Shown here: positions 28,640-43,600 of the stretch, piece by piece
Layout: each line of letters starts with the position of its first letter
Position numbering within the stretch: the stretch's first letter is position 1
Program-made: the position numbers and the translations under genes
The notes under the pieces: model-generated
What the model was told of the DNA's origin: nothing
Seen by the model: only the letters and a program-made list of their open reading frames with translations
Database searches by the model: none
Assembly (NCBI GenBank): GCA_019359115.1
Contig: JAHHHW010000115.1
Coordinates: 1-44,494 of the forward strand
DNA from: Pelatocladus maniniholoensis HA4357-MV3
GTDB lineage: Bacteria > Cyanobacteriota > Cyanobacteriia > Cyanobacteriales > Nostocaceae
DNA: 44,494 nt
Direction: 5' to 3'

Positions 28640-30013
28640 TTATAAATAAATAGAGCGAACACTATTAAGTGGGCGGATATTGAACGGTAACTTAATAGTA
28701 AAAGTACTACCTTTAGTTAATTCACTTTGTACATTCAAGTTACCGTAGTGTGCTTGGACAATTGCTTGCGAAATTGCTAATCCCAATCCAGAACCGCCAG
28801 TAGTACGAGAGCGATCGCAATTTACCCGATAAAAGCGATCAAAAATTCGTGACAACTCTGCTTGAGGAATACCAATCCCTGTATCTTCTATCTGAATTAC
28901 AGCATGATGGTCACTGCGATCTAAACAAACTGTCACCTTTCCTCCTGATGGTGTGTATTGAATAGCATTAATAATTAAATTAGAAAAAAGCCGATAAAGC
29001 TGATCTCCATTACCGACAATATTCACAGGATCTGATATTCGTAGTGTAGATGTCAGTGTTACTCCTGCTGCGATCGCCAATGCGGCAAATTCCTCTATTA
29101 GGTCATCAATAATATCATTTAAACAGCAAATATCACGTCGCAATGGCACAGTTTGACGATCTAATCTGGTTAGCAGTAATAAATCTGTCACCAGAGTAGT
29201 GAGTCGTTGATTCTGACGTTGTATGCTTTGCAGAATTTCCCGTGCCTCTGTTTGATCTAATTGTGGTATAAAAAGTGCTGATTCCACAGTTGCTTGGGTT
29301 GCGGCTAAAGGTGTCCGCAACTCGTGTGCAGCATCTGCTGTAAATTGCTGAATTTGTCTGTAAGATTTATAAATTGGTTGCATTGCTAATTCTGCTAGCC
29401 ACCAACTAGCAAGACCAACTAGACCGATAACAATTGGTGAACCTAATGCTAAGGTGAGTTTCACTGCATCTAAATAACTATTAAAATCTTCCAGACTTCG
29501 CCCTACTTGGAGATACCCCCAATCATCATTGCTTTGAGTATGCAATGTCAAAGAAATCTGGTGATAAAGCTTACCTTGACTGTCTTTTAAAGTCTGCCAT
29601 AATTCTTTGTTAAACTCAGATGACAATGCTTTTGGATCAGAACCAGCTATAGCAAACAAACGTCCAGAATTGTCAAAAAAACGTACATAATAGTGACCTT
29701 GATTAATCGCGCTTAGAGTATGGCGTCGTAAATTTGATGGCTCTGGAGTACATCTATTTCCTACCACACAGATATTTGGTAGAAGCTCTTGTATGACTGG
29801 TTCTAATCGACCTGGTTGTTGTAATTTTAGTTCAATACTATCGTGTAATGTTCCCGCAACTGATTCTATTTCCCGGTCTAATGTTACCCAATGAGCATGA
29901 GCGATCGCTCTGTAGATACCAAAGCCGCATACACTTAAAATCAAGGCCATAACCAGAGCATACCACAGAGCTAAATGCAAGCGTGTTAATTGAAACAGTT
30001 TATTCTGATTCAT
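28640..30013 (-). CDS. rppB: two-component sensor histidine kinase, RppB type
   Basis: A 457-residue membrane kinase. Two membrane helices (about 15-38 and 184-208) flank a periplasmic sensor of about 145 residues that holds Cys82 and Cys88. HisKA has the phosphorylated His230 in DAAHELRTPLAA. The HATPase domain has NLIINAIQYTP, DTGIGIP and GGSGLGLAI. Its ATG at 30013 lies inside the end of rppA (14-base overlap), so translation is likely coupled. The N-terminus and the HWVTLDREIESVAGTLHDS segment match the cyanobacterial RppB/NrsS group from memory. The neighbouring genes point to copper or another heavy metal as the signal, which is inference. Confidence 0.9.
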   Translation of the reverse strand: MNQNKLFQLTRLHLALWYALVMALILSVCGFGIYRAIAHAHWVTLDREIESVAGTLHDSIELKLQQPGRLEPVIQELLPNICVVGNRCTPEPSNLRRHTLSAINQGHYYVRFFDNSGRLFAIAGSDPKALSSEFNKELWQTLKDSQGKLYHQISLTLHTQSNDDWGYLQVGRSLEDFNSYLDAVKLTLALGSPIVIGLVGLASWWLAELAMQPIYKSYRQIQQFTADAAHELRTPLAATQATVESALFIPQLDQTEAREILQSIQRQNQRLTTLVTDLLLLTRLDRQTVPLRRDICCLNDIIDDLIEEFAALAIAAGVTLTSTLRISDPVNIVGNGDQLYRLFSNLIINAIQYTPSGGKVTVCLDRSDHHAVIQIEDTGIGIPQAELSRIFDRFYRVNCDRSRTTGGSGLGLAISQAIVQAHYGNLNVQSELTKGSTFTIKLPFNIRPLNSVRSIYL

Positions 30014-30704
30014 CCTTAAGATTGAGACGATATCCCATACCATGCAAAGTTTCAATCGTGTTTCCAGAGCCACTGTTAACTAGTTTGCGACGCAACAAAC
30101 GTATTTGAGCTGCTACTACATTACTAATAGGTTCTGCATTCACTTCCCAAAGCTGATTGCGAATTTGTTCAGTAGTAATAATTTGGTTTGGATGTTTCAT
30201 AAAATACTCTAGTAGCTGGAATTCTTTATTAGTCAGGGAAATTTCCTGTTTATTTCCTCCAGCATTTTTACTGACAACTATATTATTGCCATAGTCCAAA
30301 GTCAGCTTACCCACCGTTAATTCCTGTGGCTGAAATTGAGGCGATCGCCTTTGCAAAGCACGCAACCGCGCTAATAATTCTGCCATACCAAATGGCTTCA
30401 CTAAATAATCATCTGCACCTGCATCTAAACCAGCAACTTTATCTTCCATGCTATCTTTTGCTGTCAACATCAACACAGGCAGAGGGTTTTTATGGTAACG
30501 TAGTCGCTTGCACAACTCTAATCCTGATATTCCTGGTAGCATCCAATCAAAAATAGCTAGTGTGTATTGTGTCCAGCTATTTTCTAAATATGCCCATGCA
30601 TCATTACCATCAACTACCCAATCAATTAAATACTTCTGCTGGGTGAGAGTTCGCTTAATTGCACTACCTAAATCGGGTTCATCTTCGACTAGTAACACTC
30701 TCAT
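30000..30704 (-). CDS. rppA: OmpR/PhoB-family response regulator, RppA type
   Basis: A 234-residue two-domain regulator. The receiver domain has VEDEPDLG, the phospho-acceptor Asp53 in LAIFDWMLPG and the Lys of LVKPFG. The C-terminal winged helix has LTNKEFQLLEYFMKHPNQII and ends in IETLHGMGYRL. An ATG three codons earlier (30713) is also possible, and neither start has a ribosome site. It overlaps rppB by 14 bases and follows the DUF2808 gene, so the three may form one transcript. It is the only DNA-binding regulator in the metal island, so it is the prime candidate to bind the five ATGAAAT direct repeats listed here. Confidence 0.92.
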   Translation of the reverse strand: MRVLLVEDEPDLGSAIKRTLTQQKYLIDWVVDGNDAWAYLENSWTQYTLAIFDWMLPGISGLELCKRLRYHKNPLPVLMLTAKDSMEDKVAGLDAGADDYLVKPFGMAELLARLRALQRRSPQFQPQELTVGKLTLDYGNNIVVSKNAGGNKQEISLTNKEFQLLEYFMKHPNQIITTEQIRNQLWEVNAEPISNVVAAQIRLLRRKLVNSGSGNTIETLHGMGYRLNLKDESE

Positions 30705-30754
30705 AAAATACATCTGTCAATGGCTGTCAATGATCAGTTTAAATCTTTTCTGAT

Positions 30755-31249
30755 TTAATAGAGACGAAACCACGCTATACCTATAGGAATTACTGCATCA
30801 ATGCCAACCTCTTTAGCTGAAAAAGTGTAGACATAACCATTACCAATATTTCGTCTTTTTATCTTATTAAGGTCAACATCAAACTTAGTATTAGGGGCAA
30901 CTGCTTCGGTAAAATCTAGTAATATGGTTTTACCATTTATAGATACATTAGTATTAATTTTATGTTCATTATCATCTACGATATCAATATTTTTAATGTC
31001 ATTACTCACAGTTACATTTTCTGGGATTTTGATTAGTAGTTGGGTAACAGCTTTACTATTTTTGGGAACATGTAATCGGAAACTATGTCTAAAATTTCCT
31101 CCAATTCCCCAACGCGTGAGAGGAAATTGTACATTTCCATCAATATGGGGAAGAGTACTATCTTTTTCACTAGCATTTGCATAGCCCACAGAAATTAAAG
31201 CTGTTATACTGAGAGTATATGCGGCAGTGTAAATCAGTGATTTTTTCAT
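30755..31249 (-). CDS. DUF2808 domain-containing exported protein
   Basis: A 164-residue protein with a signal peptide (about 1-26). The DUF2808 body is beta-rich: QFPLTRWGIGGNFRHSFRLH, then VPKNSKAVTQLLIKIPENV, and a C-terminal VIPIGIAWFRLY. It should be periplasmic or outer-membrane associated. The function is unknown. From memory, DUF2808 genes are often found near RppA/RppB-type regulators in cyanobacteria. Here the gene lies 51 bases upstream of rppA on the same strand, with an ATGAAAT direct repeat about 213 bases before its start, so it is probably the first gene of the regulatory operon. Confidence 0.88.
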   Translation of the reverse strand: MKKSLIYTAAYTLSITALISVGYANASEKDSTLPHIDGNVQFPLTRWGIGGNFRHSFRLHVPKNSKAVTQLLIKIPENVTVSNDIKNIDIVDDNEHKINTNVSINGKTILLDFTEAVAPNTKFDVDLNKIKRRNIGNGYVYTFSAKEVGIDAVIPIGIAWFRLY

Positions 31250-31461
31250 ATTTATTCCTCATTTTTCCAATTTTGACAGCTAAATTTTAGGTTCATCCAT
31301 GCATAATGAACCTGTGATTAATCAATACATCTAAATTTACTAAAGCTATACTTAACTACCCCTATGTTCATCCAGTTTTTGGAATAAACTAGATAGCTAA
31401 CTTTTAGCCAATACTAAAGAAGTATGTATATCCCCTCTATCTACTAGCATGACAAGTCATG

Positions 31462-31479
31462 ATGAAATCGAGGTGAAAT
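31462..31479. promoter_or_regulatory. direct-repeat operator, DUF2808-rppA-rppB operon
   Basis: ATGAAAT-CGAG-GTGAAAT, two half-sites with an 11-bp period, about 213 bases upstream of the DUF2808 start. It matches four other sites in the island. Confidence 0.6.
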
Positions 31480-31488
31480 TTGAGATGA

Positions 31489-32436
31489 TTATTGCACATC
31501 TATCCAGAAATCAGCAGTAATTATTTTGCCATTTCGATTAAACTGTCCCCACATTTTATATTTTCCAGCTTTCGGAAAACTGGTCATAAAATGAATTTCA
31601 TCGTTTGGAGTATTTTTCATCGCATGAGCATGGATATAATCTGCTTGTGTTAATGGCGATGACTGCTTGAGGATGACTAAATGTCCTCTTTCTCCTAAAT
31701 AAGGTTTTAAATCTGTGGGTGATTTATTAGTATCGGTATCTTGTAAATTGAAAATTACATGAATCTCTTGTCCAGCTTTGATTGTGGGTTGAGGTAATTT
31801 CAGGTTAACTTTAGTGTTGCCAAATGTTTTAGTAGTAGCTAAATCAATTTTTGGCGTAGTTGGTGATTGTCCTGGAACTTGTGCTTTTAGAATTGAAACT
31901 TGTTCTGCTTTTCCCGCTACTTTGTAATCACTGAAAAGGGTGTAATTGCTAGGATAAGGAAAATCAGTTTGAACTTCAAAGCGTCCATTATTTTTATATG
32001 TAGGATGAATATGTTGAAAAGATTGTAAATCATCACTAACAACAATTAAATGCATTAATTTTTCTTGAAATTGGTCAAAGTTAGCAATTGATTTTCCGTT
32101 TTTATCTTTGATATCAATTGTTAAAGATACAGGAGTTTTAGGAACAATTGAAGTCGGAAGTGTAAGCTCCGCAATTGCATTTGCAGGTTCTAAATTTGAA
32201 TGACCTGAATGCTCATTGTGGTCATTTCCCATATTGTGACCGACATGAGAGTTTTCCTTAGTTCCTAATGTTTTGGAATGATCCATATTGTGACCTGCGT
32301 GGGAATTCGCATCCGCAATGGCATTTGTATTAGAAGTTGATGTTTCTCTTGTTTGTGAAGATTTTACTTGTGAGGCGCAAGCTTGAGTGAGAACAAGACT
32401 TGAAGTGATAGCTAGTGCAGTAAAAATTCTCTTCAT
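31489..32436 (-). CDS. histidine-rich lipoprotein, metal-island associated
   Basis: A 315-residue exported protein. The N-terminal signal ends in a lipobox (LTQACAS), so Cys20 is likely lipidated. Residues about 45-85 form a metal-binding-like patch with repeated GHNM units (HAGHNMDHS, HVGHNMGND) and HNEHSGHS. Two beta-sandwich-like parts follow (about 90-205 and 210-315), with conserved-looking His (MHLIVVSD, QHIHPTY, YIHAHAMKN, IHFM) and a C-terminal KYKMWGQFNRNGKIITADFW. The body resembles periplasmic YtkA/FixH-like domains, which is a tentative view. It has its own ATGAAAT operator 78 bases upstream. The probable role is binding copper in the periplasm. Confidence 0.8.
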   Translation of the reverse strand: MKRIFTALAITSSLVLTQACASQVKSSQTRETSTSNTNAIADANSHAGHNMDHSKTLGTKENSHVGHNMGNDHNEHSGHSNLEPANAIAELTLPTSIVPKTPVSLTIDIKDKNGKSIANFDQFQEKLMHLIVVSDDLQSFQHIHPTYKNNGRFEVQTDFPYPSNYTLFSDYKVAGKAEQVSILKAQVPGQSPTTPKIDLATTKTFGNTKVNLKLPQPTIKAGQEIHVIFNLQDTDTNKSPTDLKPYLGERGHLVILKQSSPLTQADYIHAHAMKNTPNDEIHFMTSFPKAGKYKMWGQFNRNGKIITADFWIDVQ

Positions 32437-32513
32437 TTGTTTACAGGTTTGATTGTCAAATGGAATATTTTGTTGGTGAACTTGGTTATTTACTATTAGT
32501 CTGCCATTCGATT

Positions 32514-32531
32514 ATGAAATTTGCATGAAAT
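32514..32531. promoter_or_regulatory. direct-repeat operator, His-rich lipoprotein gene
   Basis: ATGAAAT-TTGC-ATGAAAT, a perfect direct repeat with an 11-bp period, 78 bases upstream of the lipoprotein start. Confidence 0.65.
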
Positions 32532-32578
32532 CCTAAAATATCAGGACATCGCCCTTAATAAGTAATCTGTGGTTAAGA

Positions 32579-32839
32579 CGAGGCTGCCGAAATGATTTTT
32601 GAGGCTGCCGAAATGATTTTTGAGTCTGCCGAAATGATTTTTGAGTCTACCGAAATGATTTTTGAGTCTGCCGAAATGATTTTTGAGTCTACCGAAATGA
32701 TTTTTGAGTCTGCCGAAATGATTTTTGAGTCTGCCGAAATGATTTTTGAGGCTGCCGAAATGATTTTTGAGTCTGCCGAAATGATTTTTGAGTCTGCCGA
32801 AATGATTTTTGAGTCTGCCGAAATGATTTTTGAGTCTAC
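32579..32839. repeat. 21-nt tandem array, 12 units
   Basis: Twelve copies of GCCGAAATGATTTTTGAGTC with one or two variable bases (GAGGCT, GAGTCT, CTACC variants). Because 21 is a multiple of 3, both strands stay open and read as seven-residue repeats (AEMIFES on plus, RLKNHFG on minus). There is no start signal, conserved flank or codon bias to suggest a protein. It fills most of the gap between two lipoprotein genes (32437-32899). Confidence 0.95.
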
Positions 32840-32899
32840 CTCTCTTCAGGCGCAATCCCTGTACCTTTATCTTGTAACTCGGAGAATGTCAAGATAAGT

Positions 32900-33424
32900 C
32901 TATTGATTAAAAGTAAACCTACCATTTACTTTTTCACCTTTAAGATCAGCAATAACTTTTACTTGATATTGACCAGTTGCTTTTTCAGTTAACTTTGCTG
33001 TGTAATGTTTTCCATTAGCTTCATATGTCATGGGAATTGATTTTTGTTTTCCATCAGGTAGCTGAACTTGAGCCGTTACTTTCGCGTCAGGTACTGTTTC
33101 ATGGTTGTCACCTTTTAGCAGGTATAAATCCATATGAGTTGCACTTGCTTCTTTTTCAGGAACAAATTCTAAATGATAAGTTCCTGTCTCTACAACTTGA
33201 CCACCTTTAGATGCACCATGTTCGTTATTTGTTTTAGCAGCAGGTGAAGCAGAAGCAGTTGGTGATACAGAACCAGAGTTAGAGCTTACTGAAGTATTAC
33301 TAGAAGTATTATTATCTGTAGTAGCTGTTTGATTGCTGTTACTACAAGCACCTAAAAAAACTAGTCCGACACTTGCTAAAAATACAAAACTGAGATTCAG
33401 ATATTGCATTAAATGATTCTTCAT
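32900..33424 (-). CDS. lipoprotein with metal-efflux-associated domain, hypothetical
   Basis: A 174-residue exported lipoprotein. The lipobox LGAC puts the lipidated Cys at 27. Next comes a low-complexity Ser/Thr/Asn/Ala linker (about 28-68), which would reach across the periplasm. The folded part (about 70-174) begins GGQVVETGTYHLEFVPEKEA and goes on with MDLYLLKGDNHETVPDAKVT and VKVIADLKGEKVNGRFTFNQ. That fold resembles the small beta-domain proteins seen next to RND metal pumps, but I cannot name the family with certainty. An ATGAAAT operator lies about 198 bases upstream. A periplasmic copper-binding or pump-accessory role is inferred. Confidence 0.78.
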   Translation of the reverse strand: MKNHLMQYLNLSFVFLASVGLVFLGACSNSNQTATTDNNTSSNTSVSSNSGSVSPTASASPAAKTNNEHGASKGGQVVETGTYHLEFVPEKEASATHMDLYLLKGDNHETVPDAKVTAQVQLPDGKQKSIPMTYEANGKHYTAKLTEKATGQYQVKVIADLKGEKVNGRFTFNQ

Positions 33425-33621
33425 TTGAGAAATTTAATTGTAATGTGGATAGTGATAAACGCAGTTTTTAGCAAAAAAATCTGCAAAACTATTGCTTGTC
33501 TTAGTTTTCGTTAGGATTTATGTATTTATAATTACTCCTGATTTGTTAGAAACTATTTTATACGAGTAGATTACATTTTTGTAAGCAAATTTAGTGACAA
33601 TATCAAGTATTACAAATCGAA

Positions 33622-33639
33622 ATGAAATTGAGATGAAAT
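33622..33639. promoter_or_regulatory. direct-repeat operator, lipoprotein gene 32900-33424
   Basis: ATGAAAT-TGAG-ATGAAAT, a perfect direct repeat with an 11-bp period, about 198 bases upstream of the lipoprotein start. Confidence 0.65.
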
Positions 33640-33697
33640 TTATCAAACAGGTAGAATCAGCCAGGATAGCTTATATTTTGCAGCTACCTAATATCCC

Positions 33698-33748
33698 GCC
33701 AGAGAATAAATTCTCTGGCTAATAGCACAAGTCCGTTGAAAACGGACT
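33698..33748. repeat. double-hairpin extragenic repeat
   Basis: GCCAGAGAAT / ATTCTCTGGC (33698-33719) forms a perfect 10-bp stem. AGTCCGTT / AACGGACT (33730-33748) forms a perfect 8-bp stem just after it. I recall this double hairpin as a common dispersed repeat of Nostoc-like genomes. Confidence 0.75.
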
Positions 33749-33793
33749 CAAAGATTTATCCAGTCAGCTAATCGCAAACTTGAGCTTTGAGTA

Positions 33794-33903
33794 CTAGTGC
33801 TTCTCCACATTAATCTTGAGGGATTATAGATCCTCGACAATTTTTGCGAAGTTGGGGATCTAAACACCTGCGACTCATCAAAATTAATGTGGTGGAGTAC
33901 TAG
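33794..33903. mobile_element. MITE-like element, 110 bp
   Basis: The ends CTAGTGCTTCTCCACATTAAT and ATTAATGTGGTGGAGTACTAG are inverted repeats matching at 18 of 21 positions. There is no ORF inside. Size and structure fit a miniature inverted-repeat element. The rest of 33425-34277 holds the operators and hairpins listed and no gene that I can see. Confidence 0.55.
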
Positions 33904-34195
33904 CTTCGAGGTTAAGTTCTAATAAACAATTATTACTTTTGTGCAACTTAGGTCAGTCAATTGCTAGTGTTGTTGAGAATTGAGAAGAAGTAACTATTTC
34001 CCAGATTCAATTAGCGACCAAAGCACTTACAGCGCCACCAGTAGTGAGGGTAATAAACTGATGGCTGTTTATTTTTTCAGAATTCATTATTTGCAATTAT
34101 TCTAGATTTTTGATTGAGTCTATCAGGCACAATTTTACAATTTTGATTTTAATTTAAAAAACTGCTTTATAAATTTTTATGATAAGCATATCAAA

Positions 34196-34213
34196 GTGAA
34201 ATCAAGATGAAAT
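34196..34213. promoter_or_regulatory. direct-repeat operator, Cys-rich copper-storage gene
   Basis: GTGAAAT-CAAG-ATGAAAT with an 11-bp period, about 125 bases upstream of the ATG at 34338. This is the only one of the five sites that reads in the same direction as its gene. Confidence 0.65.
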
Positions 34214-34337
34214 TTAACATATGTACAAGTAAGAAAATTAAAAATATTCTTTTATTCCTATAGTTAGAAGCACTATTTTGAAGTCTTTTTCTATTCTTCT
34301 AATTACGAAAGCGCAAATCATGAAAATAGGGGTGTAT

Positions 34338-34676
34338 ATGCTTTTAGTTCACGAAGAATATCAATCTAGTTTTGATGTTGCGATGTACTGTGCAGTAGAG
34401 TGCGAACACTGTGCTGAAGCCTGTATCGGTCATGCAGAAATGGCACAATGCGCTCGTACCTGCCTTGATTGTGCAGAAATTTGCCGGACTGTGGCTATTT
34501 ATATGGTACGTGGTTCGCGTTTTATTCCTCACTTAGTACGTGCTTGTGCAGAGATATGTGAAGCCTGCGCCAAAGAATGTGAGAAGCATGATGCAGAACA
34601 CTGCAAGAAATGTGCAAAAGCTTGTCGGCAAGCTGTAGAAGAATATCGCAAAATCGCTGCTGTAGGAGTGGCATAA
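34338..34676 (+). CDS. four-helix bundle copper-binding protein (Csp/DUF326-like)
   Basis: A 112-residue protein with 15 cysteines, nearly all in helical CxxxC or CxxC spacing (CAVECEHCAEAC, CARTCLDCAEIC, CAEICEACAKEC, CKKCAKAC). This is the pattern of the copper-storage (Csp) four-helix bundle, where Cys line the core and bind many Cu(I) ions. It lacks a signal peptide, so it is of the cytosolic type. The frame is open upstream, but TAGGGGTG just before the ATG at 34338 and the family start MLLVHEEYQS favour it. An ATGAAAT operator lies 125 bases upstream. It should store or buffer copper alongside the efflux pumps. Confidence 0.9.
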   Translation: MLLVHEEYQSSFDVAMYCAVECEHCAEACIGHAEMAQCARTCLDCAEICRTVAIYMVRGSRFIPHLVRACAEICEACAKECEKHDAEHCKKCAKACRQAVEEYRKIAAVGVA

Positions 34677-34694
34677 GTTTAATTTACTTCAACC

Positions 34695-34802
34695 GTAAGG
34701 CAAGCTGTTTATCAGTTCACACTGCTTTACTTAGTAGTGATTACTAGTAATTGATCGGGTACACTCCGCGAGAAAAATCATAATTGATTTAGCTTGCCTT
34801 AC
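34695..34802. mobile_element. MITE-like element, 108 bp
   Basis: GTAAGGCAAGCT (34695-34706) is perfectly inverted at 34791-34802. There is no ORF inside. It lies between the copper-storage and P-type ATPase genes. Confidence 0.55.
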
Positions 34803-34892
34803 ATTTTCCTAACCCTAAATAGAAGAAAACGAGCAATCATCGCTGACAAACCCACGTATTCAGGAGCTATGCACAGAGATTGTGACAACACA

Positions 34893-34931
34893 GAAGGAGG
34901 AGATCAAGATTATGAAAACACTTATGGAATA
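34893..34931 (+). other. orphan ribosome site with a 6-codon ORF
   Basis: AAGGAGGA (34893-34900), the best Shine-Dalgarno match in the island, precedes ATG at 34911 and a six-codon frame that stops at 34931. It lies 113 bases before the P-type ATPase start. It may be a leader peptide or the stub of a deleted gene. Confidence 0.3.
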
Positions 34932-35043
34932 GAGGCAGAGGGCAGACGACAGAAGGGAAAGATTTTTTAGTTGATGAGATTTAACTAAAAATTCAGCGTA
35001 TTCATTATTTTCACATTCAAGTGCAAGATATAAATGTAAGCTA

Positions 35044-37101
35044 ATGACAAAGCAACATCACACACGAAATAACCACGTAGTTCGAGAAGGTGATGAACAC
35101 CACAATCATGCCGGACACTTAGAACATGGTGGACACGCCGGACATGGTAAACATGCAGGACACAGCCCGGAAATTTTCAAACGTCGCTTTTTTATCTGCC
35201 TTGTTCTAACTTTACCCATCTTATATTTTTCCACCCAACTACAAGATTGGTTAAATTATGAAGCGATCGCATTTCCCCGTTCGGAGTGGATTAATCCGGT
35301 TTTAGCAATCATCATCTATTTTTATGGCGGTTGGGTATTTCTCAAAGGTGCTTGGAACGAACTGCACAGCAAAATTGGGATGATGACTTTGATTGCGCTG
35401 GCAATTACAGTAGCATTTGTCTACAGCTTGGCAGTTTCTCTCGGTTTGCAGGGAATGCCTTTCTATTGGGAATTAGCAACCCTAGTAGATATTATGTTGT
35501 TGGGACATTGGATAGAAATGGCTTCTGTTCAAGGTGCTAGCCGGGCTTTAGAAAATCTGGCAGAATTAGTACCTTCTCAAGCTCATCGCTTTACTAACGG
35601 TAAAGTTGAAGATGTTGCAGTTAGCGACATTCAAGCAGAAGATATCATTTTAATTCGTCCGGGTGAGCAGGTTCCCAATGATGGGATTGTGATTGAGGGA
35701 GACACCAATATTAATGAATCTTTTCTCACAGGTGAATCTCGTCCCGTTTCTAAACACGAAGGCGATGAAGTCGTAGCTGGTTCGGTTAACGGTGAAGGTT
35801 CGGTAAAAGTTAAAGTTACTCGTATTGGTGGCGATACGACGATTAATCAGATTATGCGCTTGGTAGAAGAGGCGCAGGGTTCAAGAAGTAGATATCAAGT
35901 TTTAGCAGACCGGACAGCTTACTGGTTAACTATCATTGCGATCGCTGCTGGTAGTCTCACTTTCTTTACTTGGCTATTTTTTAGTGATTTAATTTTTGCT
36001 GTCAACCGTAGCGTGACCGTATTAGTTATAACTTGTCCTCATGCCCTCGGTTTAGCTATTCCTTTGGTAATTGCTAACTCTACTGGTTTAGCTGCTAAAA
36101 ATGGAATTTTGGTGAGAAATCGAGATGCTTTAGAACGAGCAAAAGATATTAAAAATATGGCGTTCGATAAAACTGGAACCCTGACAGAAGGACGCTTTGC
36201 AGTTCAAAGAGTTGTGAGTGACTCTTTAACAGAAGAACAAGCCTTAGCAATAGCCGCTGCTTTGGAAACTTCTTCTGAACATCCCTTAGCGAAAGCAGTG
36301 GTGGAAGCCGCAGAACGTCGCCAACTGCATTTACCTCAAATGACTGATTTTAAAACAGTAACAGGTCGTGGAGTTGAGGGTAAAGTTAACGGTCAAACTT
36401 ACCGGATTGGTCGTCCGGAGTGGGTAGAAGAACAAAATCTGACTTTGCCATCATCTCTGCGTCAAGGACTAAATAAAGCAGACGAACGCGGTGAAAGTGC
36501 AGTAGTTTTAATGACAAATAAAAGTGCTGTTGCTGTAATTTCAATGGCTGACCAAGTGCGGGAACGGGCGCGAGAAGCGGTAAATAAATTAAAAGCAAAA
36601 AATATTCAAGTAGTCATGATTACCGGAGATGCGGAAGCTGTTGCCCGTGCAGTTGCTGAGGATTTAGGTATCGACCGTTACTATGGTCGAGTTTTGCCAG
36701 AAGACAAGGTTAGTATTATCAAACAATTGAAACAAGAAGGTGCAACAGCTTTTGTTGGTGATGGAATTAACGATGCAGCTGCACTTTTAGAAGCTAATAT
36801 TGGGATTGCGATCGGTGCAGGGACTAATGTTGCGATCGAGTCAGCTGATTTGGTATTGATTGAGGATGATCCCTTAGATGCCGTTAAAGCCCTTAATTTA
36901 GCACAGAAAACCTACAGCAAAATGATTCAAAATCTGGTATGGGCAACAGGTTACAACGTCATTTCTATTCCTCTGGCTGCTGGTGTGCTTTATACTTGGG
37001 GAATTTTACTTTCGCCAGCCGTGGGAGCATTGTTAATGAGTTTATCAACTGTGATTGTGGCAATTAACGCCGTAATGTTACGACGGGCGAAGTTGGCTTG
37101 A
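35044..37101 (+). CDS. heavy-metal P1B-type ATPase, CopB-like (CPH class)
   Basis: A 685-residue metal-exporting ATPase. The N-terminal tail (1-42) is very rich in His and has HAGH/HGGH units instead of a CxxC metal-binding domain. Membrane helices surround the core motifs. The actuator has LTGESRPVSK at 228-237. The metal-site motif is CPH (331-333, TCPHALGLAIPL). The phosphorylated Asp375 is in FDKTGTLTEG, and SEHPLAKA and VGDGINDAAALLEA follow. CPH with a His-rich tail marks the CopB class, linked to copper or silver export. The ATG has no strong ribosome site. No ATGAAAT repeat was found just upstream, so it may rely on another promoter. Confidence 0.95.
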   Translation: MTKQHHTRNNHVVREGDEHHNHAGHLEHGGHAGHGKHAGHSPEIFKRRFFICLVLTLPILYFSTQLQDWLNYEAIAFPRSEWINPVLAIIIYFYGGWVFLKGAWNELHSKIGMMTLIALAITVAFVYSLAVSLGLQGMPFYWELATLVDIMLLGHWIEMASVQGASRALENLAELVPSQAHRFTNGKVEDVAVSDIQAEDIILIRPGEQVPNDGIVIEGDTNINESFLTGESRPVSKHEGDEVVAGSVNGEGSVKVKVTRIGGDTTINQIMRLVEEAQGSRSRYQVLADRTAYWLTIIAIAAGSLTFFTWLFFSDLIFAVNRSVTVLVITCPHALGLAIPLVIANSTGLAAKNGILVRNRDALERAKDIKNMAFDKTGTLTEGRFAVQRVVSDSLTEEQALAIAAALETSSEHPLAKAVVEAAERRQLHLPQMTDFKTVTGRGVEGKVNGQTYRIGRPEWVEEQNLTLPSSLRQGLNKADERGESAVVLMTNKSAVAVISMADQVRERAREAVNKLKAKNIQVVMITGDAEAVARAVAEDLGIDRYYGRVLPEDKVSIIKQLKQEGATAFVGDGINDAAALLEANIGIAIGAGTNVAIESADLVLIEDDPLDAVKALNLAQKTYSKMIQNLVWATGYNVISIPLAAGVLYTWGILLSPAVGALLMSLSTVIVAINAVMLRRAKLA

Positions 37102-37142
37102 ATCTATGCACACAGGGAGGAGAGGCAAAATTTTACCAAAAA

Positions 37143-40100
37143 TTACCACTCCAATACTCCCCCAACTTCCTTTTCTTGTTCAACACTTGACATTTGTTTT
37201 GGCATTAACAACTTACTGAACTTAGCGTATAAAGCAGGTAACACCAATAAAGTTAAAGCAGTAGAAGTAAACAAACCTCCCAGTACTACTACCGCCAAAG
37301 GTTGCAAAATTTCCTTACCTGCACCCGTACCAATTACTAAAGGAACCATTCCCAAAGCGGAGGTCAGAGCTGTCATTAAAATAGCTACTAAGCGTTCCAT
37401 CGATCCCTCAAAAATTACTTCCCGTAGAGTCATTCCCTCTGCCAACTTATTGTTGTAATTGTCTACTAGCAGCAAGCCGTTGCGTGTTGCTACGCCAAAA
37501 AGGGTAATAAAGCCTACTAGGGAAGCTACAGAAATGATCCCGCCCCCTAAAGCAATCGAAAATATCCCCCCAACCACAGCCAGAGGTAAGTTAATCATAA
37601 TCATCAGCATCGCCGCGACGGATTTAACGGCAAAGTACATTAATATACTAATTACGACAATTGCCAGTCCCCCAAATACCAGTAAATTCTGAGTAGCTCG
37701 TTGTTCTGATTCAAACTGACCGCCGTATTGAATAAAGTAGCCTGTGGGCAATTGTACTGAGTTTTTGACTTGAGCTTGAATTTCATCTACTACAGAACCT
37801 AAATCTCGACCTGATACGTTTGCAGACACAACAATTAGGCGAGAAACATTTTCGCGGTTAATTGTGTTGGGGCCAGTTCCGTAGTCTATGCTGGCGACTT
37901 GCGCGAGAGGAATTTTCTGACCTGTGGGGGTATCTACCAATAAATTACGAATAATATCTAAATTATTACGAGCATCTTCTTTTAACCAAACCACCAAGTC
38001 AAACAGTTGTTGGTCTTTAAGAACCTGAGATACTACTCGTCCATTGAAAGCAGTTTCTACCATCTCACTCAAATTACCCACAGTTAAGCCATAACGAGCT
38101 GCTGCTTCGCGGTTAAATTTAATTTGTAACTGTTTAATCGGGACTTGAGGTTCGAGTTGTAAGTCTACGAGTCCGGGAATATTACTCACTGCTGCTTGAA
38201 CTTCTGTCCCCAAACGGCGTAGTTCTTGCAAATCGGGACCGAAAATTTTAATAGCGATCGCACTCCTTACCCCAGATAATACTTCATCCATGCGGTGAGA
38301 AATAAACCCACCAATATTAGGCGCAATTCCCGGTATCTTAGCAAATTCTGCTCGCAGCTTCTCAATACTTCCTTTGCGATCTTTCAATCCCTCTGCACTT
38401 AGTTCTACATCTAAATGTCCCAAGTTAACCCCACCTGCATCCGCATCACCAGGGGCGCGTCCAGCCCGTAACTGCACCGTTTTAAATCGCTGATCATTTT
38501 TAAGAGCATCCTGCATCACAAATCCAACTTGATTGGTTGCTTCTAGAGAACTTCCTGGATAAAGCAGGACTGCGTTTACTAAAGATGGTTCTTGGAACTC
38601 CGGCAAAAATACTCGTCCTAAACTTGGGAGAATAACCAAAGATGTAACTAAAGATGCTCCAGCAACGGCCAAAATAATTGTGGGGAAACGCATCGAAAAA
38701 TTCAGGATTGGTCGATAGAGTCGCTGTGATAAAGCACTCACCCAAGTATCATCTGCTGGTAGCGATCGATTTGCTAATAAAATTGCACACAAGGCTGGGG
38801 AAAGGGTCATTGCTACAAGCGTTGAAGCAAAAATTGACACCAAGTAAGCAACCCCCATCGGTGCAAATATCCGACCTTCCACGCCTGTAAGGAAGAAAAT
38901 TGGTGCAAAAACAACGGCAATAATTACGGTAGAAAAAATTACACTAACTCTGACTTCTACAGAGGTATCGTAAACAACTTTGAAAGGATTTACAGGAGTT
39001 CCCGCTAGCTGATTTTTTCGCAAACCCCGGTAGGCATTTTCCATATCAACGATAGAATCATCCACTACCGAACCAATTGCCACAGCTAATCCTCCTAATG
39101 TCATAGTATTGATACCCTGACCAAACAAGCCCAAAATCATCATCCCAATCAAAACTGATAAAGGAATAGCGCTAAGGGTAATCACGGCGGTGCGCCAGTT
39201 CATCAAAAATAGCAGCAGGATAATTGAAACGATGATGATACCATCGCGTAGAGAACTGGTAACATTTTCAATTGCTGCATCGATAAAATTATTTTGGCGG
39301 AAAGTTTCGATAACTTTGACATCTTTAGGTAAGCCAGCTTTGACCTCTTCCATTGCCTTTTCAATGGCTCTGGTGACAGTCGGGGTATCATATTGGGGTT
39401 GCTTGTTAACCATCACTGCGATCGCCCTTTGACCGTTTAAACTGCCATCTCCACGCTTGAGGGCTGCACCAATTCGCACATCTGCAATATCTTTTAGTAA
39501 AATCGGCGTACCATTGCGAGCTGTAATTACAGAATTTCCCAATTGCTCAATTGAATCTATGCGTCCGACTCCACGAATAACTATTTCTTGGTCAGGATTA
39601 ATCAAAAAGCCACCCGCAGCATTGACATTCGCGCCTCTTGCTGCTGCTGTGACTTCTTCTAAAGTGACATTAAAAGCCTTGAGCTTGGCTGGATCAACTA
39701 AAACCTGATACTGGCGGACATCACCACCATAGGCGATCACCTGAGAAACACCCGGTACAGCTAGCAGTCGGTTGGTAATATCTCGGTCAACCAAACGCCG
39801 CACTTCCATCATGGGAGTTGTTTCGGTAGTTAAAGCATATTGCAGAACTGTACCAATGGGGGAAGAGATTGGAGAAATTTGTGGGTTTTCCACGCCCTCT
39901 GGTAGTTTTTGCACAGCCTGTTGCAATCGTTCTGTGACTAACTGGCGGGCTTGATAAACATTAGTTCCCCATTGAAAAATTACCTTAACAACAGAAATGC
40001 TAACCGCCGAGGAAGAACGCACAGTTTCTACTCCCGGTGTACCATTGACTGCACTTTCAATTGGCAAAGTAATTAAAGATTCAACTTCTTCGGGGGCGAG

Positions 40101-40265
40101 TCCTGGAGCTTCAGTTTGAATTTCGACTTGGGGTGGGGCAAAATCAGGAAAGACATCTAAAGGCATTTGGGTAAGATTATACACACCCAAAAAAGTGACA
40201 ACAATTGCTCCCAACACCACTATCCAACGTTGGACAATCGACCACTTGAGAATAGCATTTAACAT
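37143..40265 (-). CDS. CusA/CzcA-family heavy-metal RND efflux pump
   Basis: A 1040-residue inner-membrane proton-driven transporter of the HME-RND class. It has the usual twelve-helix layout with two large periplasmic loops. DVFPDFAPPQVEIQTEAPGL near 36-55 is typical. TM4 has the acidic relay AIGSVVDDSIVDMENAYR. GVATRNGLLLVDNYN lies in the second half. Length matches the family. It follows the adaptor gene on the same strand after 55 bases, so they should form one transcript that starts near the ATGAAAT repeat at 42014. The metal is probably copper or silver from context, but CzcA-like specificity cannot be excluded. Confidence 0.95.
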   Translation of the reverse strand: MLNAILKWSIVQRWIVVLGAIVVTFLGVYNLTQMPLDVFPDFAPPQVEIQTEAPGLAPEEVESLITLPIESAVNGTPGVETVRSSSAVSISVVKVIFQWGTNVYQARQLVTERLQQAVQKLPEGVENPQISPISSPIGTVLQYALTTETTPMMEVRRLVDRDITNRLLAVPGVSQVIAYGGDVRQYQVLVDPAKLKAFNVTLEEVTAAARGANVNAAGGFLINPDQEIVIRGVGRIDSIEQLGNSVITARNGTPILLKDIADVRIGAALKRGDGSLNGQRAIAVMVNKQPQYDTPTVTRAIEKAMEEVKAGLPKDVKVIETFRQNNFIDAAIENVTSSLRDGIIIVSIILLLFLMNWRTAVITLSAIPLSVLIGMMILGLFGQGINTMTLGGLAVAIGSVVDDSIVDMENAYRGLRKNQLAGTPVNPFKVVYDTSVEVRVSVIFSTVIIAVVFAPIFFLTGVEGRIFAPMGVAYLVSIFASTLVAMTLSPALCAILLANRSLPADDTWVSALSQRLYRPILNFSMRFPTIILAVAGASLVTSLVILPSLGRVFLPEFQEPSLVNAVLLYPGSSLEATNQVGFVMQDALKNDQRFKTVQLRAGRAPGDADAGGVNLGHLDVELSAEGLKDRKGSIEKLRAEFAKIPGIAPNIGGFISHRMDEVLSGVRSAIAIKIFGPDLQELRRLGTEVQAAVSNIPGLVDLQLEPQVPIKQLQIKFNREAAARYGLTVGNLSEMVETAFNGRVVSQVLKDQQLFDLVVWLKEDARNNLDIIRNLLVDTPTGQKIPLAQVASIDYGTGPNTINRENVSRLIVVSANVSGRDLGSVVDEIQAQVKNSVQLPTGYFIQYGGQFESEQRATQNLLVFGGLAIVVISILMYFAVKSVAAMLMIMINLPLAVVGGIFSIALGGGIISVASLVGFITLFGVATRNGLLLVDNYNNKLAEGMTLREVIFEGSMERLVAILMTALTSALGMVPLVIGTGAGKEILQPLAVVVLGGLFTSTALTLLVLPALYAKFSKLLMPKQMSSVEQEKEVGGVLEW

Positions 40266-40310
40266 ATTTTGTTCAACTTAAGATCATGCGTGCTGCTTGT
40301 TTCTTTTGCC

Positions 40311-40338
40311 TTTTTACTTTTTACTTTTTACTTTTTAC
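40311..40338. repeat. heptamer tandem array (TTTTTAC), 4 units
   Basis: Four perfect 7-base units. They encode the last residues of the RND adaptor (VKSKK) on the minus strand, supply its TAA stop, and run on into the gap. Confidence 0.85.
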
Positions 40339-41916
40339 TTTAGGTGTATCTACTAGCACTAGCTGCTGTGATTTGTGATGACGACCATTCCAGAAAGCGC
40401 CAGCCATAAAACCTAAAGTAGCAGTTGCGGCTACTCCCCCTACTCCCAATAGCCATAATAAGTATGGTGTTTTCGGCTCTATCTTTGTCTGTGCAGGAGT
40501 TTCTCTAGCTTCGTCTTGTTTCGGTTTGCTACCACCTCGCAGAGATTGAGCATAAAGTTGAGGTGCGCGCTGGGTGACAATCAAATCTCCCTCGAATAAC
40601 CCAGTCTTTACCTCAACCATGTCGCCAGAGTTTTGCCCTAAAGTAACTTCAACAGGTTGGTAAGCATTACCATTCTGCACGTAAACCTGTTTTTTATCAT
40701 TCACATCAACTACAGCTGAGGTGGGAATAGCCAAACTAGGTGCTGAGGTTTGGTCTGTTAGGACTTCTAGTTCTGCAAACATCCCTGGTTTGAGGACTCC
40801 GCCTGGATTATTTATTTGAGCTTTTACGGGTATTACTCGCGTTTCACCTTCTACTACTGACCCAATTACGGCAATTTTTCCTGTAAAAGTGCGCTTAGGT
40901 ACAGAAGCAACTTTGACACTTACTCGTTGACCTGTTCTTACTTTATCTAAATCTTTTTCATAAATATTCGCTGTAGCAAAAACCCGACTGTCATTGACAA
41001 TCGTCATCAATTTGCCACCAGCATCCTCAAAAGTTTGACCAATTGTTACTTCCCTATCTGCAACTTTACCAGCAATCGGAGCAGTCACCGTCACCAGTCC
41101 CTTGGCATTACCACTGTTACCCAATTGTTGAAGGCGAGTTTGATAAATATTATTACTGAGTTGAATATTTCTTTTTGCAACGTTAACTGCGGCTTGAGCG
41201 CGTTTGAGTTGATTTTCTGCCTGAATCACGTCTCGACGACTTTTGGCTTTGGTGAGTTCGGCTTTTGCTTGTGCTAGTTGGGTTTGGGATTCTAAAGCAT
41301 TGCGTCGGGGTAAAGCACCTGTATCAGCTAACTGTTGGTCTTTATCGTATTTTTCTTGAGCAAATGATACTTGGCTCTGGGCTTGAGCGATTTCAGAATC
41401 GGCTATTTGTTGATAGCGATCGTAGTTTTGTTGAGCCAGTCTTAAGTCAGCTTGTGCTTGCTGTAAATCAGCTTGAGCTTGAGCAAGTTTTTCCTGAGAT
41501 TCAACGCGCAATGTCACTAAATCAGGGCTGGTAACAACAGCAACGGGTTGACCTTTTGTTACACCTGCACCAGGTTCCACTAACAATTCAACCACTTTCG
41601 CTCCAGAAATTGGGGTAGTCACTTCCACTTTTTGACTGGGTAGAGTTTCAATTTGTCCAGTGGTTTTAATCCCTAGAGCTAGCTGTTGACGTTGGACTGG
41701 CTCGACTTTAATTTCTAGCCGTTTGGCTGTATCAACATCAACTTGAATAGAATTAGTAGTTTGAGTGGTTTCACTTTCTTGATGAAATTCGTTTCCATGT
41801 CCACTATGAGCCAGAACAACTGCGGGACTTGCTAAAAACAGCAGGCTAACAATTGTGCCATAAACACAAGGAATTGCCGTAGGTGTTTGGGAACGCACAG
41901 AGTAAGACATCGCCAT
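40321..41916 (-). CDS. RND efflux periplasmic adaptor, CusB/HlyD family
   Basis: A 531-residue membrane-fusion protein that links the RND pump to an outer-membrane channel. It has a signal-like hydrophobic segment (about 18-36) followed by a His patch (AHSGHGNEFHQES). A barrel-sandwich half (VEPGAGVTKGQPVAVVTSPD) and a very long Gln/Ala-rich coiled-coil hairpin (about 135-255) come next. The returning lipoyl half is VTAPIAGKVADREVTIGQTF, and a beta-barrel completes the fold. Unusually, a hydrophobic helix near 490-512 (PYLLWLLGVGGVAATATLGF) gives a C-terminal membrane anchor. The last residues are encoded by a heptamer array. No CusC/TolC-like gene lies here, so the channel must come from elsewhere. 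Confidence 0.93.
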   Translation of the reverse strand: MAMSYSVRSQTPTAIPCVYGTIVSLLFLASPAVVLAHSGHGNEFHQESETTQTTNSIQVDVDTAKRLEIKVEPVQRQQLALGIKTTGQIETLPSQKVEVTTPISGAKVVELLVEPGAGVTKGQPVAVVTSPDLVTLRVESQEKLAQAQADLQQAQADLRLAQQNYDRYQQIADSEIAQAQSQVSFAQEKYDKDQQLADTGALPRRNALESQTQLAQAKAELTKAKSRRDVIQAENQLKRAQAAVNVAKRNIQLSNNIYQTRLQQLGNSGNAKGLVTVTAPIAGKVADREVTIGQTFEDAGGKLMTIVNDSRVFATANIYEKDLDKVRTGQRVSVKVASVPKRTFTGKIAVIGSVVEGETRVIPVKAQINNPGGVLKPGMFAELEVLTDQTSAPSLAIPTSAVVDVNDKKQVYVQNGNAYQPVEVTLGQNSGDMVEVKTGLFEGDLIVTQRAPQLYAQSLRGGSKPKQDEARETPAQTKIEPKTPYLLWLLGVGGVAATATLGFMAGAFWNGRHHKSQQLVLVDTPKVKSKK

Positions 41917-42013
41917 GAAAAATCCTTGAGTATGGAGCGTCAGGAATTGCGAGTGGTCAAAAGTACTTTCTCATTTTGAGAAATGCACTCTTACACTAGT
42001 GTTTCATTTAGAA

Positions 42014-42031
42014 ATGAAATTAGGATGAAAT
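42014..42031. promoter_or_regulatory. direct-repeat operator, RND pump operon
   Basis: ATGAAAT-TAGG-ATGAAAT, a perfect direct repeat with an 11-bp period, 98 bases upstream of the adaptor start. Confidence 0.65.
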
Positions 42032-42050
42032 CGAGCTTAAGCGTTATGTT

Positions 42051-42157
42051 CTATAGCACTTCTGACTTGATTGCAATACAGTCGGAACCCCACCCCGGTT
42101 TTGCATCAGCAAAACCGGGGTGGGGTGCGTATTGGACACAACCGAGAACTGCTATAG
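42051..42157. mobile_element. MITE-like element, 107 bp, with a central 17-bp hairpin
   Basis: The ends CTATAGCACTTCT and AGAACTGCTATAG are inverted repeats (12 of 13). The centre is a perfect 17-bp stem, CCCCACCCCGGTTTTGC (42088-42104) and its complement (42109-42125), with an ATCA loop. There is no ORF of its own. Confidence 0.6.
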
Positions 42158-42314
42158 TTTCAACGGATTTAAAGCTTCTGGCTCTTGACCAAGCAGTATT
42201 GGGCCGGAAGTATAAAAGTCAGTGATAAAATCTCTGGCAAGACCTCTACTTCAGGTATTCTGGTAGAGGTTATTACTTATTTATTAACCATTTACAATCA
42301 AGTAGGTAGATATC

Positions 42315-43082
42315 GTGGCACAGGCTTCCTCTTCTTGGCAGCAATTAATTGACCAGATCCTCGATTGGATGCTTCCAGAGTTCAAGTCGGGAGCCACAAA
42401 AAAGTTACCTCTAGAACGTTTCCGTGGACCAGGAGGCGCTCTTGGGTTTCTGACTATAGTAGTGGCGATGCTATTGTGGAATTGGAAACTGCTGTTAGCT
42501 AGTAGTGCGGGTATGGGGACAATGATGTTTGTTTATTCCATGCAAGCATGGCGTTGGCAGTTACACTTGTCTGAAATTAAGAAATTTTTAAATAGTCCGA
42601 ACCGTCGGCTGACTCTAGCCGTGATTAGTGGTGGTATGGCTTGCTTCAGCACTTACATGGCAACTGTGATTTGGTTAGAATCCAATAGCCATTGGCTGGC
42701 CGCAGGCGTAATTTTGCAAGGTTCAGCAACACTAATAACATTATTTTTATTGACATGGCAAATAGTCAGCCTTTACGGAAATAGAGATGAAAATCAGTTA
42801 GATAATTTATTAACTAATCTCACCGAAAAAGATCCTCTCAAGCGTTTAATCGCTATACGTCTGCTAACAAAATTAATCACTAACAATCGAATTGATGCTT
42901 CAGAGTTACAAAATATTGATCAATGTTTAAGACTACTGCTTTGTCATGAAGAAGAAGCAGCAATCCGAGAAGCAGCTTTTAGTAGTTTGCAAGTCTTGGA
43001 GCGAATGCAAATGCTTTCATCAACTCCTGTAGCACTTAAAATACCTACCAAAGCAAAAGTTAAAAGTCGAATTATACTTTAA
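42315..43082 (+). CDS. membrane protein with armadillo-like helical tail
   Basis: A 255-residue protein. The N-terminal part is polar (1-45), with two hydrophobic pairs at about 45-76 and 100-150. The C-terminal cytoplasmic part (about 165-240) is a set of amphipathic helices (DPLKRLIAIRLLTKLITNNR, EEAAIREAAFSSLQVLERMQ) like an armadillo or HEAT repeat. It matches, from memory, a cyanobacterial family annotated as armadillo-type fold-containing. The function is unknown and probably involves protein binding. The start codon is GTG; no earlier ATG is available. Confidence 0.8.
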   Translation: MAQASSSWQQLIDQILDWMLPEFKSGATKKLPLERFRGPGGALGFLTIVVAMLLWNWKLLLASSAGMGTMMFVYSMQAWRWQLHLSEIKKFLNSPNRRLTLAVISGGMACFSTYMATVIWLESNSHWLAAGVILQGSATLITLFLLTWQIVSLYGNRDENQLDNLLTNLTEKDPLKRLIAIRLLTKLITNNRIDASELQNIDQCLRLLLCHEEEAAIREAAFSSLQVLERMQMLSSTPVALKIPTKAKVKSRIIL

Positions 43083-43101
43083 ACGGTAAAAAACTAAACG
43101 G

Positions 43102-43266: not shown

Positions 43267-43334
43267 ATGATTGTCCAACGTCCAGACGAAAGTAGATATA
43301 AAGTGCTTACTATAAACCAATACGGTTCAGTAGA

Positions 43335-43376: not shown

Positions 43377-43438
43377 GGTACACACCAATTTTCTGTACTA
43401 AAAATCCTTAACACCAACCGTATTGGCTTAAAAACCAA

Positions 43439-43585: not shown

Positions 43586-43600
43586 TTACAAAAGATTAAA

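What the first reader, a model, noticed from the sequence alone, without database searches (positions are those of the whole stretch)
31462..42031. Five matching direct-repeat operators define a local metal regulon
The sequence (A/G)TGAAAT-N4-(A/G)TGAAAT occurs at 31462, 32514, 33622, 34196 and 42014, always with an exact 11-bp period. Each copy lies upstream of a different unit: DUF2808-rppA-rppB, the His-rich lipoprotein, the second lipoprotein, the copper-storage protein and the RND pump. I found no other copy in the window. An 11-bp direct repeat fits a tandem OmpR-type dimer, and RppA is the only such regulator here. In reverse it reads TTTCAT-N5-TTTCAT, which from memory resembles the sites of the copper regulator CopR in Synechocystis. 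The regulon joins two uncharacterised lipoproteins and a DUF2808 protein to known copper genes.
Basis: partly seen in the sequence, partly recalled or inferred. Interest (0 to 1): 0.75.

Follow-up and report, generated by a model that had tools for sequence, protein, structure and literature searches.

The report
Expanded copper-responsive CopR regulon in cyanobacteria
Five copies of one DNA switch next to copper-handling genes are almost certainly binding sites of a known copper regulator, which in this cyanobacterium and its relatives appears to control more genes than had been recognised.

Summary
The five repeats are real: none in 100 shuffles, and 5 of the genome's 6 exact copies lie here. 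Read the other way they are ATTTCAT-N4-ATTTCAT, the published putative CopR site of Synechocystis (PMC4182526); pSYSX has it before copM (exact) and copB (one mismatch). The window's RppA is 65% identical to that CopR. Around 80 related rppA genes 254 copies have the 11-bp period; other spacings give 0-2. Four of the five are followed by an extended -10 at a fixed distance, placing the box at -40 to -23.

Corrections: the site before the copper-storage gene is reversed, as in all 23 of 30 csp loci that have one; the "second lipoprotein" is a CopC homologue; a sixth copy is a relic copB promoter.

New: a divergent DUF2808 branch is the commonest target. Copper and nickel promoters of the family share the box but differ by one base in its distance to the -10 (where that signature is found: 94 of 95 cop-type at +0, 25 of 25 nrsB at +1). 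Binding and metal response were not testable here.

The parts
31462..31479 (-). CopR box 1, before DUF2808-rppA-rppB; extended -10 (TGTCATGCT) at 31446-31454, inferred start near 31439
   Evidence: composite pattern 31446-31479, 0 mismatches
32514..32531 (-). CopR box 2, before the His-rich lipoprotein; extended -10 at 32498-32506, inferred start near 32491
33622..33639 (-). CopR box 3, before the CopC-like lipoprotein; extended -10 at 33606-33614, inferred start near 33599
34196..34213 (+). CopR box 4, before the copper-storage protein gene, reversed relative to that gene; the extended -10 signature is not complete in either direction
   Evidence: (composite only with 2 mismatches)
42014..42031 (-). 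CopR box 5, before copB-copA (RND pump); extended -10 at 41998-42006, inferred start near 41991
28640..30013 (-). rppB, sensor histidine kinase (CopS-like, 51% identical to CopS of pSYSX); start at residue 21 (Met) of the listed ORF inferred from the alignment
30000..30713 (-). rppA, OmpR-family response regulator (CopR-like, 65% identical to CopR of pSYSX)
30755..31249 (-). DUF2808 protein of a divergent branch; predicted Ig-like beta-sandwich; N-terminus looks like a signal peptide (not tested)
31489..32436 (-). His-rich protein with lipoprotein-like N-terminus (by look), no Pfam family; some relatives beside metal-resistance genes
32900..33424 (-). lipoprotein-like protein homologous to the gene after copA on pSYSX, by position CopC of copBAC
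   Evidence: (H121, 49.5% over residues 69-173)
34278..34676 (+). four-helix-bundle copper-storage protein (Csp type, below that model's cut-off); the search with the shorter form used the inner Met at 34338
35044..37101 (+). copper-type P1B ATPase downstream of csp, no exact box of its own; membership in the regulon only possible through read-through
37143..40265 (-). copA-like CusA/CzcA RND pump
40321..41916 (-). copB-like periplasmic adaptor, first gene of the pump operon

Best explanation
The five repeats are CopR boxes. RppB (a CopS-type membrane kinase) senses excess copper outside the cytoplasm and phosphorylates RppA (CopR). RppA binds as a head-to-tail dimer to ATTTCAT-N4-ATTTCAT, one subunit per half-site on one face of the helix. 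It recruits RNA polymerase to an extended -10 promoter that lacks a -35, the box occupying -40 to -23. It thus switches on its own operon (with DUF2808), a His-rich lipoprotein, a CopC-like lipoprotein and the CopBA pump, and probably the copper-storage protein from a reversed box. Shown here: sequence, position, conservation, promoter register, homology to CopR and the same box at its two known promoters. Inferred: binding, phosphorylation, copper as the signal, activation.
For: Five sites, none expected; 5 of 6 genome copies here. 254 sites at period 11 in 72 of 80 rppA loci; 0-2 at each other period from 7 to 27; mirrored pattern 0 at period 11. In 217 family genomes 1575 sites against 112 mirrored; median 7 sites with a close RppA (120 genomes), 4 with only a more distant one (47), 1 with none or weak (50); close against none p = 2e-14 (typed). 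Directional extended -10 in 167 of 239 distinct sites against 2 of 259 reading the other way. Box plus extended -10 in 96 of 291 genomes of the class, mirrored control 0. Own genome: 5 of 6 exact copies have the full extended -10, 0 of 24 one-mismatch copies examined (25 listed, one not fetched). Synechocystis pSYSX: copM exact and copB one mismatch, both with the extended -10. Autoregulation: rppA is the second largest target cluster, 33 of 191. The six own-genome OmpR-type paralogues compared are 37-45% identical to RppA.
Against: 8 of 80 rppA loci have no exact box; 45 of 85 rppA genes have no box with at most one mismatch within 350 bp (some may lie inside longer operons, as in the window). 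The metal was not tested, and the nickel-type paralogue uses the same box. In the 52-row tree the window group is nearer to the NrsR clade (93/79) than to Synechocystis CopR. A 2026 review reports another motif, AAMAWCTCYYWCCCC, for Synechocystis RppA (sll0797) (PMC13421787 passages). The csp site has the opposite orientation and no complete -10 signature. In Synechocystis CopRS was reported to control only copMRS and copBAC, plasmid genes not being covered by the array (PMC4182526 section 10).
Confidence: 0.9

Rival explanations
1. The operators and RppA are real, but RppA here answers to nickel, cobalt or several metals (NrsR-like) rather than mainly copper.
For: NrsR-type RppA shares the box and most of the C-terminal SNVVAAQxRLLRRKL stretch (alignment; that this is the recognition helix is recalled). 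In the 52-row tree the NrsR clade nests within the cop-linked rows, next to the Nostocales group that holds the window (93/79).
Against: The window RppA lies outside the NrsR clade (97/91). Its promoters have the cop register (+0), and the genome has no match to the +1 pattern. The genome has no nrsB match at E<=1e-12. The genes served are copper-type by homology (Csp, CopB, CopA, CopC).
Confidence: 0.1
2. A different transcription factor binds the boxes and RppA is a bystander encoded nearby.
For: Binding was not tested. The RppA family search returned 104 matches in this genome, 2 over the cut-off.
Against: Box number rises with the presence of a close RppA across 217 genomes. Boxes are found within 10 kb of rppA in 72 of 80 loci and before rppA itself. 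The box stands before both operons reported to be bound by CopR in Synechocystis (PMC4284471 passages).
Confidence: 0.04
3. The repeats are chance or copies of a mobile or repetitive element rather than operators.
For: The window holds two 21-bp tandem arrays, so repeats do spread here; the sixth genome copy is a duplicated promoter piece.
Against: Outside the half-sites the flanks differ, yet the extended -10 is kept at one register. The mirrored controls at period 11 and of the composite pattern are empty.
Confidence: 0.01
4. Box 4 (34196) does not serve csp; it is a leftover of a divergent copM promoter lost from this genome.
For: It is reversed relative to csp. In L107 a Pfam-confirmed DUF305 (copM) gene reads away from csp there, and four other loci (L118, L119, L127, L139) have a secreted-looking gene there that I take for copM by look. 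This genome has no DUF305 gene.
Against: 13 of 23 csp loci with a box keep two: the outer one with a complete extended -10 reading away from csp, and a csp-proximal one without it. The window's box matches the csp-proximal box of the congener L186 in distance (-142) and flank. Boxes are reversed in 23 of 23 csp loci that have any (7 of 30 have none).
Confidence: 0.3

Closest known systems
CopRS / copMRS-copBAC regulon of Synechocystis sp. PCC 6803
   Same: Same box, same extended -10 at the same distance, regulator 65% identical, kinase 51%, shared targets copB, copA, copC-like and the regulator operon.
   Different: Here copM (DUF305) is absent from the genome and DUF2808 stands in front of the regulator. 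The copC-like gene and a His-rich lipoprotein have their own boxes, and a reversed box stands before csp. In Synechocystis only two operons were reported as CopR targets (PMC4182526 section 10); here there are five boxes, and up to 70 exact sites in one related genome.
NrsRS / nrsBACD (RppAB, nickel) of Synechocystis
   Same: Same RppA/RppB family and the same box.
   Different: The extended -10 lies one base further from the box in 25 of 25 distinct nrsB promoters in which it is found, against 0 of 95 cop-type promoters. The regulators form a separate clade, 97/91.
PhoB / OmpR-type class II activation at tandem direct repeats (recalled)
   Same: 11-bp tandem half-sites replacing the -35 next to a -10.
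   Different: Different half-site sequence, and a strong extended -10 (TG) in addition. The comparison with the pho box is from memory; no call tested it.

Membership tests
CopRS copper regulon | Response regulator of the CopR/RppA subfamily beside a CopS/RppB kinase | tested here: met
   NCBIfam RppA 412.6 bits (cut-off 250), RppB 746 bits (cut-off 400); 65% and 51% identity to CopR and CopS
CopRS copper regulon | Box TTTCAT-N5-TTTCAT at copB and regulator-operon promoters | tested here: met
   published form TTCATN4-5TTCAT in PMC4182526
CopRS copper regulon | Orthology to CopR rather than NrsR | tested here: inconclusive
   Excluded from the NrsR clade (97/91) but not grouped specifically with Synechocystis CopR; cop-linked rows are paraphyletic
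CopRS copper regulon | Copper-induced, regulator-dependent expression | not testable with these tools
   needs RNA-seq or reporter data
CopRS copper regulon | CopM (DUF305) in the regulator operon | tested here: not met
   No DUF305 match in the genome; DUF2808 stands in that place. A difference in content, not in regulator or box
NrsRS nickel regulon | Same box with the -10 one base further, next to nrsB | tested here: not met
   Own composite sites are at +0, none matches the +1 pattern (row G000); no nrsB match in the own genome

The most novel reading that the evidence does not exclude
A one-base spacer code keeps two paralogous two-component systems apart. CopR (copper) and NrsR (nickel) read the same 11-bp tandem box, but their promoters differ by exactly one base in the distance from box to extended -10 (10 against 11), so each regulator meets polymerase productively only at its own promoters. 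This would answer the published puzzle of why the CopR-like boxes at nrsRS/nrsBACD do not respond to copper. Alongside, the CopR regulon of Nostocales includes a divergent DUF2808 branch as its commonest target and a csp promoter with a reversed box.
Probability: 0.3. Interest if true: 0.78.

Novelty: new variant of a known kind. Interest (0 to 1): 0.52.

Why it matters
CopRS of cyanobacteria was thought, from Synechocystis, to run two operons (PMC4182526 section 10). Here it has five boxes in one small cluster, and one related genome carries 70 exact boxes. That ties little-studied proteins (a DUF2808 branch, a His-rich lipoprotein, and in relatives an OprB-type porin, a cysteine-synthase-like enzyme and CemA) to metal defence by an exact, testable promoter rule. 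The shared box with a one-base register difference between copper and nickel promoters turns an open question, how close paralogues with nearly the same DNA-binding domain avoid cross-talk, into a single-base experiment.

Tried and rejected
A DUF2808 protein as an obvious copper binder: 29 sequences show no conserved His, Cys or inner Met (P76, F113 and G157 invariant), and the model is a generic Ig-like beta-sandwich with best TM about 0.56 and no copper protein among the 50 rows shown. This rests on one model with mean pLDDT 81.

All DUF2808 proteins as copper genes: rejected for this genome. It has three PF10989 proteins, and only the divergent one in the window has an exact box.

A larger hidden regulon in this genome: the box plus extended -10 with up to 2 mismatches gave 12 places, 5 exact (4 in the window, 1 relic) and 7 with 2 mismatches, one of them box 4; the mirrored control gave 4, so the six other weak ones look like background.

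A small ORF of 26 codons left of box 4 as its true target: no match in the 86 sequences of the search set except the window itself (a peptide so short gives a weak search); set aside.

RNA families in 28000-44494: none at the gathering score. A viral-contig scan for DUF2808: no relative. Anabaena PCC 7120 plasmid check of copper-induced genes: record not held under the accession tried.

The one-base register was first seen in sets chosen by pattern, which could be circular. It was repeated on genes chosen by protein alone. It still rests on one gene family (nrsB) on the nickel side, so it may be one ancestral event. Exceptions: one copM promoter (L256) has the +1 register, one rppA promoter +2, and 4 promoters before unidentified genes have +1. 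The mirrored control of the +1 pattern gave 2 matches. Dropped before the counts: for nrsB (30 genes) 1 identical copy, 3 boxes without the TG, 1 without box; for cop-type genes (272) 45 identical copies, 27 boxes without the full extended -10, 105 genes without a box within 350 bp.
Full report
OBSERVATION. The pattern RTGAAAT-N4-RTGAAAT occurs five times in the window, exactly where stated, and nowhere else in it; 100 dinucleotide shuffles gave none. With up to three mismatches the count is at background (37 against a mean of 32), so it is the exact pairs that carry the signal. An order-3 Markov estimate is 0.005 pairs per window. The genome (6.70 Mb, 167 contigs) has six exact copies, five here; the mirrored control has none. 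The sixth, at C13:285, shares its core and part of its flank with the copB promoter of the window, and the reading frame behind it is cut short: I read it as a relic of a second copB promoter.

WHAT IT IS. Read towards the genes, four sites are ATTTCAT-N4-ATTTCAT. The open literature gives the putative CopR site of Synechocystis as TTCATN4-5TTCAT, found at the cop promoters, mntC and the nrsRS/nrsBACD divergent promoters (PMC4182526, section 10 read whole; other parts as passages). The original description (Giner-Lamia 2012) is not held and was not seen. I checked the plasmid pSYSX itself: an exact box lies before copM and a one-mismatch box before copB. Its CopR is 65% identical to the window RppA, and its CopS 51% identical to the window RppB. 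NCBI's names for both pairs are RppA/RppB.

CONSERVATION. Around 80 rppA relatives (1.47 Mb; one search kept the best 80 of 164), 254 exact pairs have period 11, in 72 loci; the other periods from 7 to 27 give 0-2 each, and the mirrored pattern gives 0 at period 11 and 0-3 elsewhere. In 217 genomes of the family there are 1575 exact sites against 112 mirrored. The number follows the regulator: median 7 (120 genomes with a close RppA), 4 (47 with a more distant one), 1 (50 with none or only a weak one); the mirrored means are 0.47, 0.40 and 0.74 (typed). Of ten further plasmid loci that I picked, seven have at least one exact box and all ten a box with at most one mismatch.

PROMOTER ANATOMY. 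Aligning 175 distinct upstream sites showed two further conserved blocks: TG at positions 25-26, and A29 and T33, counting the first base of the box as 0. A29 and T33 fit the -11A and -7T of a -10 hexamer and TG the extended -10, so the box spans -40 to -23. This is the place of a PhoB-type class II activator (recalled comparison). The full signature is present in 167 of 239 distinct sites in the gene direction and in 2 of 259 reading the other way. In the window boxes 1, 2, 3 and 5 have it and box 4 does not. Of the exact copies in the genome 5 of 6 have it; of the 24 one-mismatch copies examined (of 25 listed) 0 do. The composite pattern is found in 96 of 291 genomes of the class, with a mirrored control of 0.

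TARGETS. In the window: DUF2808-rppA-rppB, a His-rich lipoprotein, a second lipoprotein, copBA, and csp. The second lipoprotein matches the gene after copA on pSYSX (49.5% over residues 69-173), by position CopC of copBAC; the name comes from PMC4284471 passages. Around the rppA relatives (window included) the 191 distinct targets cluster as DUF2808 56, rppA 33, copB 24, cysteine-synthase-like 18, DUF305/CopM 16, SLH-OprB porin 8, CusA 6, CopC-like 5, CemA 5, His-rich lipoprotein 4, and 16 in smaller sets (names, rppA, copB and CusA by likeness to the window's genes). 64 of 70 DUF2808 genes in that search set have a correctly oriented box within 400 bp. This is a divergent branch: the genome's two other PF10989 proteins score 186 and 140 bits against 33 for this one. 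One DUF2808 protein of Anabaena, All7597, was seen in the exoproteome (PMC10957091 passages); by its number it lies near all7594, whose copper induction was shown (PMC4335983 section 21; other parts as passages). A tie of DUF2808 to copper regulation was not found in the held library by two searches: DUF2808 with copper (1 paper, passages seen) and DUF2808 alone (4 papers, three seen as listing only).

THE CSP SITE. Box 4 is reversed relative to csp. Among 30 csp loci of the family (those fetched; 47 of 217 genomes had a match; the window's own is one of the 30) 23 have at least one box, all reversed, and 7 have none. 13 of the 23 have a second, outer box with a complete extended -10 reading away from csp; the csp-proximal box lacks the complete signature in 20 of 23 (complete in L189, L203 and L213; in L203 and L213 the nearest exact box may be the outer one). 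In L107 the gene read from the outer box is a Pfam-confirmed DUF305 (copM). The window keeps the csp-proximal box although the genome has no DUF305. Downstream of it, towards csp, A-T-N-AGTAATAAAT at positions 29-41 is common among 20 distinct sequences, the window departing in part. I therefore think it serves csp from a reversed box, about 0.65 likely; this is the weakest of the five.

COPPER OR NICKEL. NrsR-type regulators use the same box. Their clade is separate (97/91) and excludes the window, but the window group is next to it (93/79) and not specifically with Synechocystis CopR (the row named cop_L261 there is an nrs locus, mislabelled by my script). Comparing promoters of genes chosen by protein alone: of 30 nrsB genes, 25 distinct promoters have the extended -10 one base further from the box and none at the standard place (3 boxes lack the TG, 1 gene has no box, 1 is a duplicate); of the cop-type genes around rppA (272 genes of seven families), 94 distinct promoters have the standard register, 1 has +2 and none +1, the rest being duplicates, incomplete or without box. 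Fisher p = 3e-26, computed as 25/0 against 0/94, leaving out the +2 case and not corrected for shared ancestry. In pattern-chosen sets, nrsB 24 of 24 at +1, named cop-type genes 60 of 61 at +0, unidentified genes 17 at +0 and 4 at +1; the +1 pattern occurs in 31 of 291 genomes against 2 mirrored matches, and 25 of the 30 loci fetched are nrsB-type. The window's four good promoters have the copper register. PMC4182526 noted that the boxes at nrs and mntC do not respond to copper and that more elements should be involved; the register is a candidate. Against a simple reading: half-site details also differ (nrs often ATTTCAC...TTTTCAT), and the nickel side is one gene family. That nrsB-type genes answer to nickel rests on the literature for Synechocystis (PMC4284471 passages) and homology.

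CONFLICT. A 2026 review gives another motif for Synechocystis RppA/sll0797 (PMC13421787 passages). It does not match this box; I cannot reconcile the two here.

MECHANISM, with status. Box, promoter register, conservation, co-occurrence with RppA: shown. RppA binds as a tandem dimer: inferred from family and period. Copper sensing by RppB: inferred from CopS and gene content. Activation: inferred from position of the box at -40 to -23.

VERDICT. A real and well-conserved operator set, the regulator kind known, the box already published for Synechocystis, the regulon wider than described, with a testable register rule that may separate copper from nickel promoters.

Noticed in passing
L318-L347 (nrsB loci) against L105-L184 (cop loci): Nickel-type promoters of the RppA family have the extended -10 one base further from the same box than copper-type promoters (25 of 25 against 0 of 95 in which the signature is found).
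   Followed up: yes
G000:C13:269-302 (locus L001): A relic promoter of a second copB with intact box and extended -10 but a truncated reading frame.
   Followed up: partly
window 32580-32837 and 43439-43590: Two tandem arrays with different units, both with a 21-bp period (12.3 and 7.2 copies, 97 and 96% match), one between the His-rich and CopC-like lipoprotein genes.
   Followed up: no
L145:7862-8965 and 17 other loci: A cysteine-synthase-like (PALP) gene stands behind a box near rppA in 18 loci, though only 1 of 13 distinct boxes there had the extended -10 signature.
   Followed up: partly
L151:2513-4234, L182:3103-3924, L154:2934-4859: SLH-OprB porin (8 loci), CemA (5 loci) and an FtsH-type protease (1 locus) stand behind CopR boxes in relatives.
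   Followed up: partly
PMC13421787 (passages): The motif reported for Synechocystis RppA (sll0797), AAMAWCTCYYWCCCC, does not resemble the TTTCAT box that nrs promoters carry.
   Followed up: no
L117 (Hydrococcus rivularis): An rppA 88% identical to the window's occurs in Hydrococcus rivularis, a genus I recall as outside the Nostocales, and 14 of 22 plasmids with a relative of the window's DUF2808 are typed conjugative; horizontal spread of the copper cluster seems likely.
   Followed up: no
window 31489-32436: Relatives of the His-rich lipoprotein occur on plasmids of Hymenobacter (beside DUF305, RND and P-type ATPase genes), Priestia (no metal-resistance genes annotated beside it) and Staphylococcus (counts only).
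   Followed up: partly
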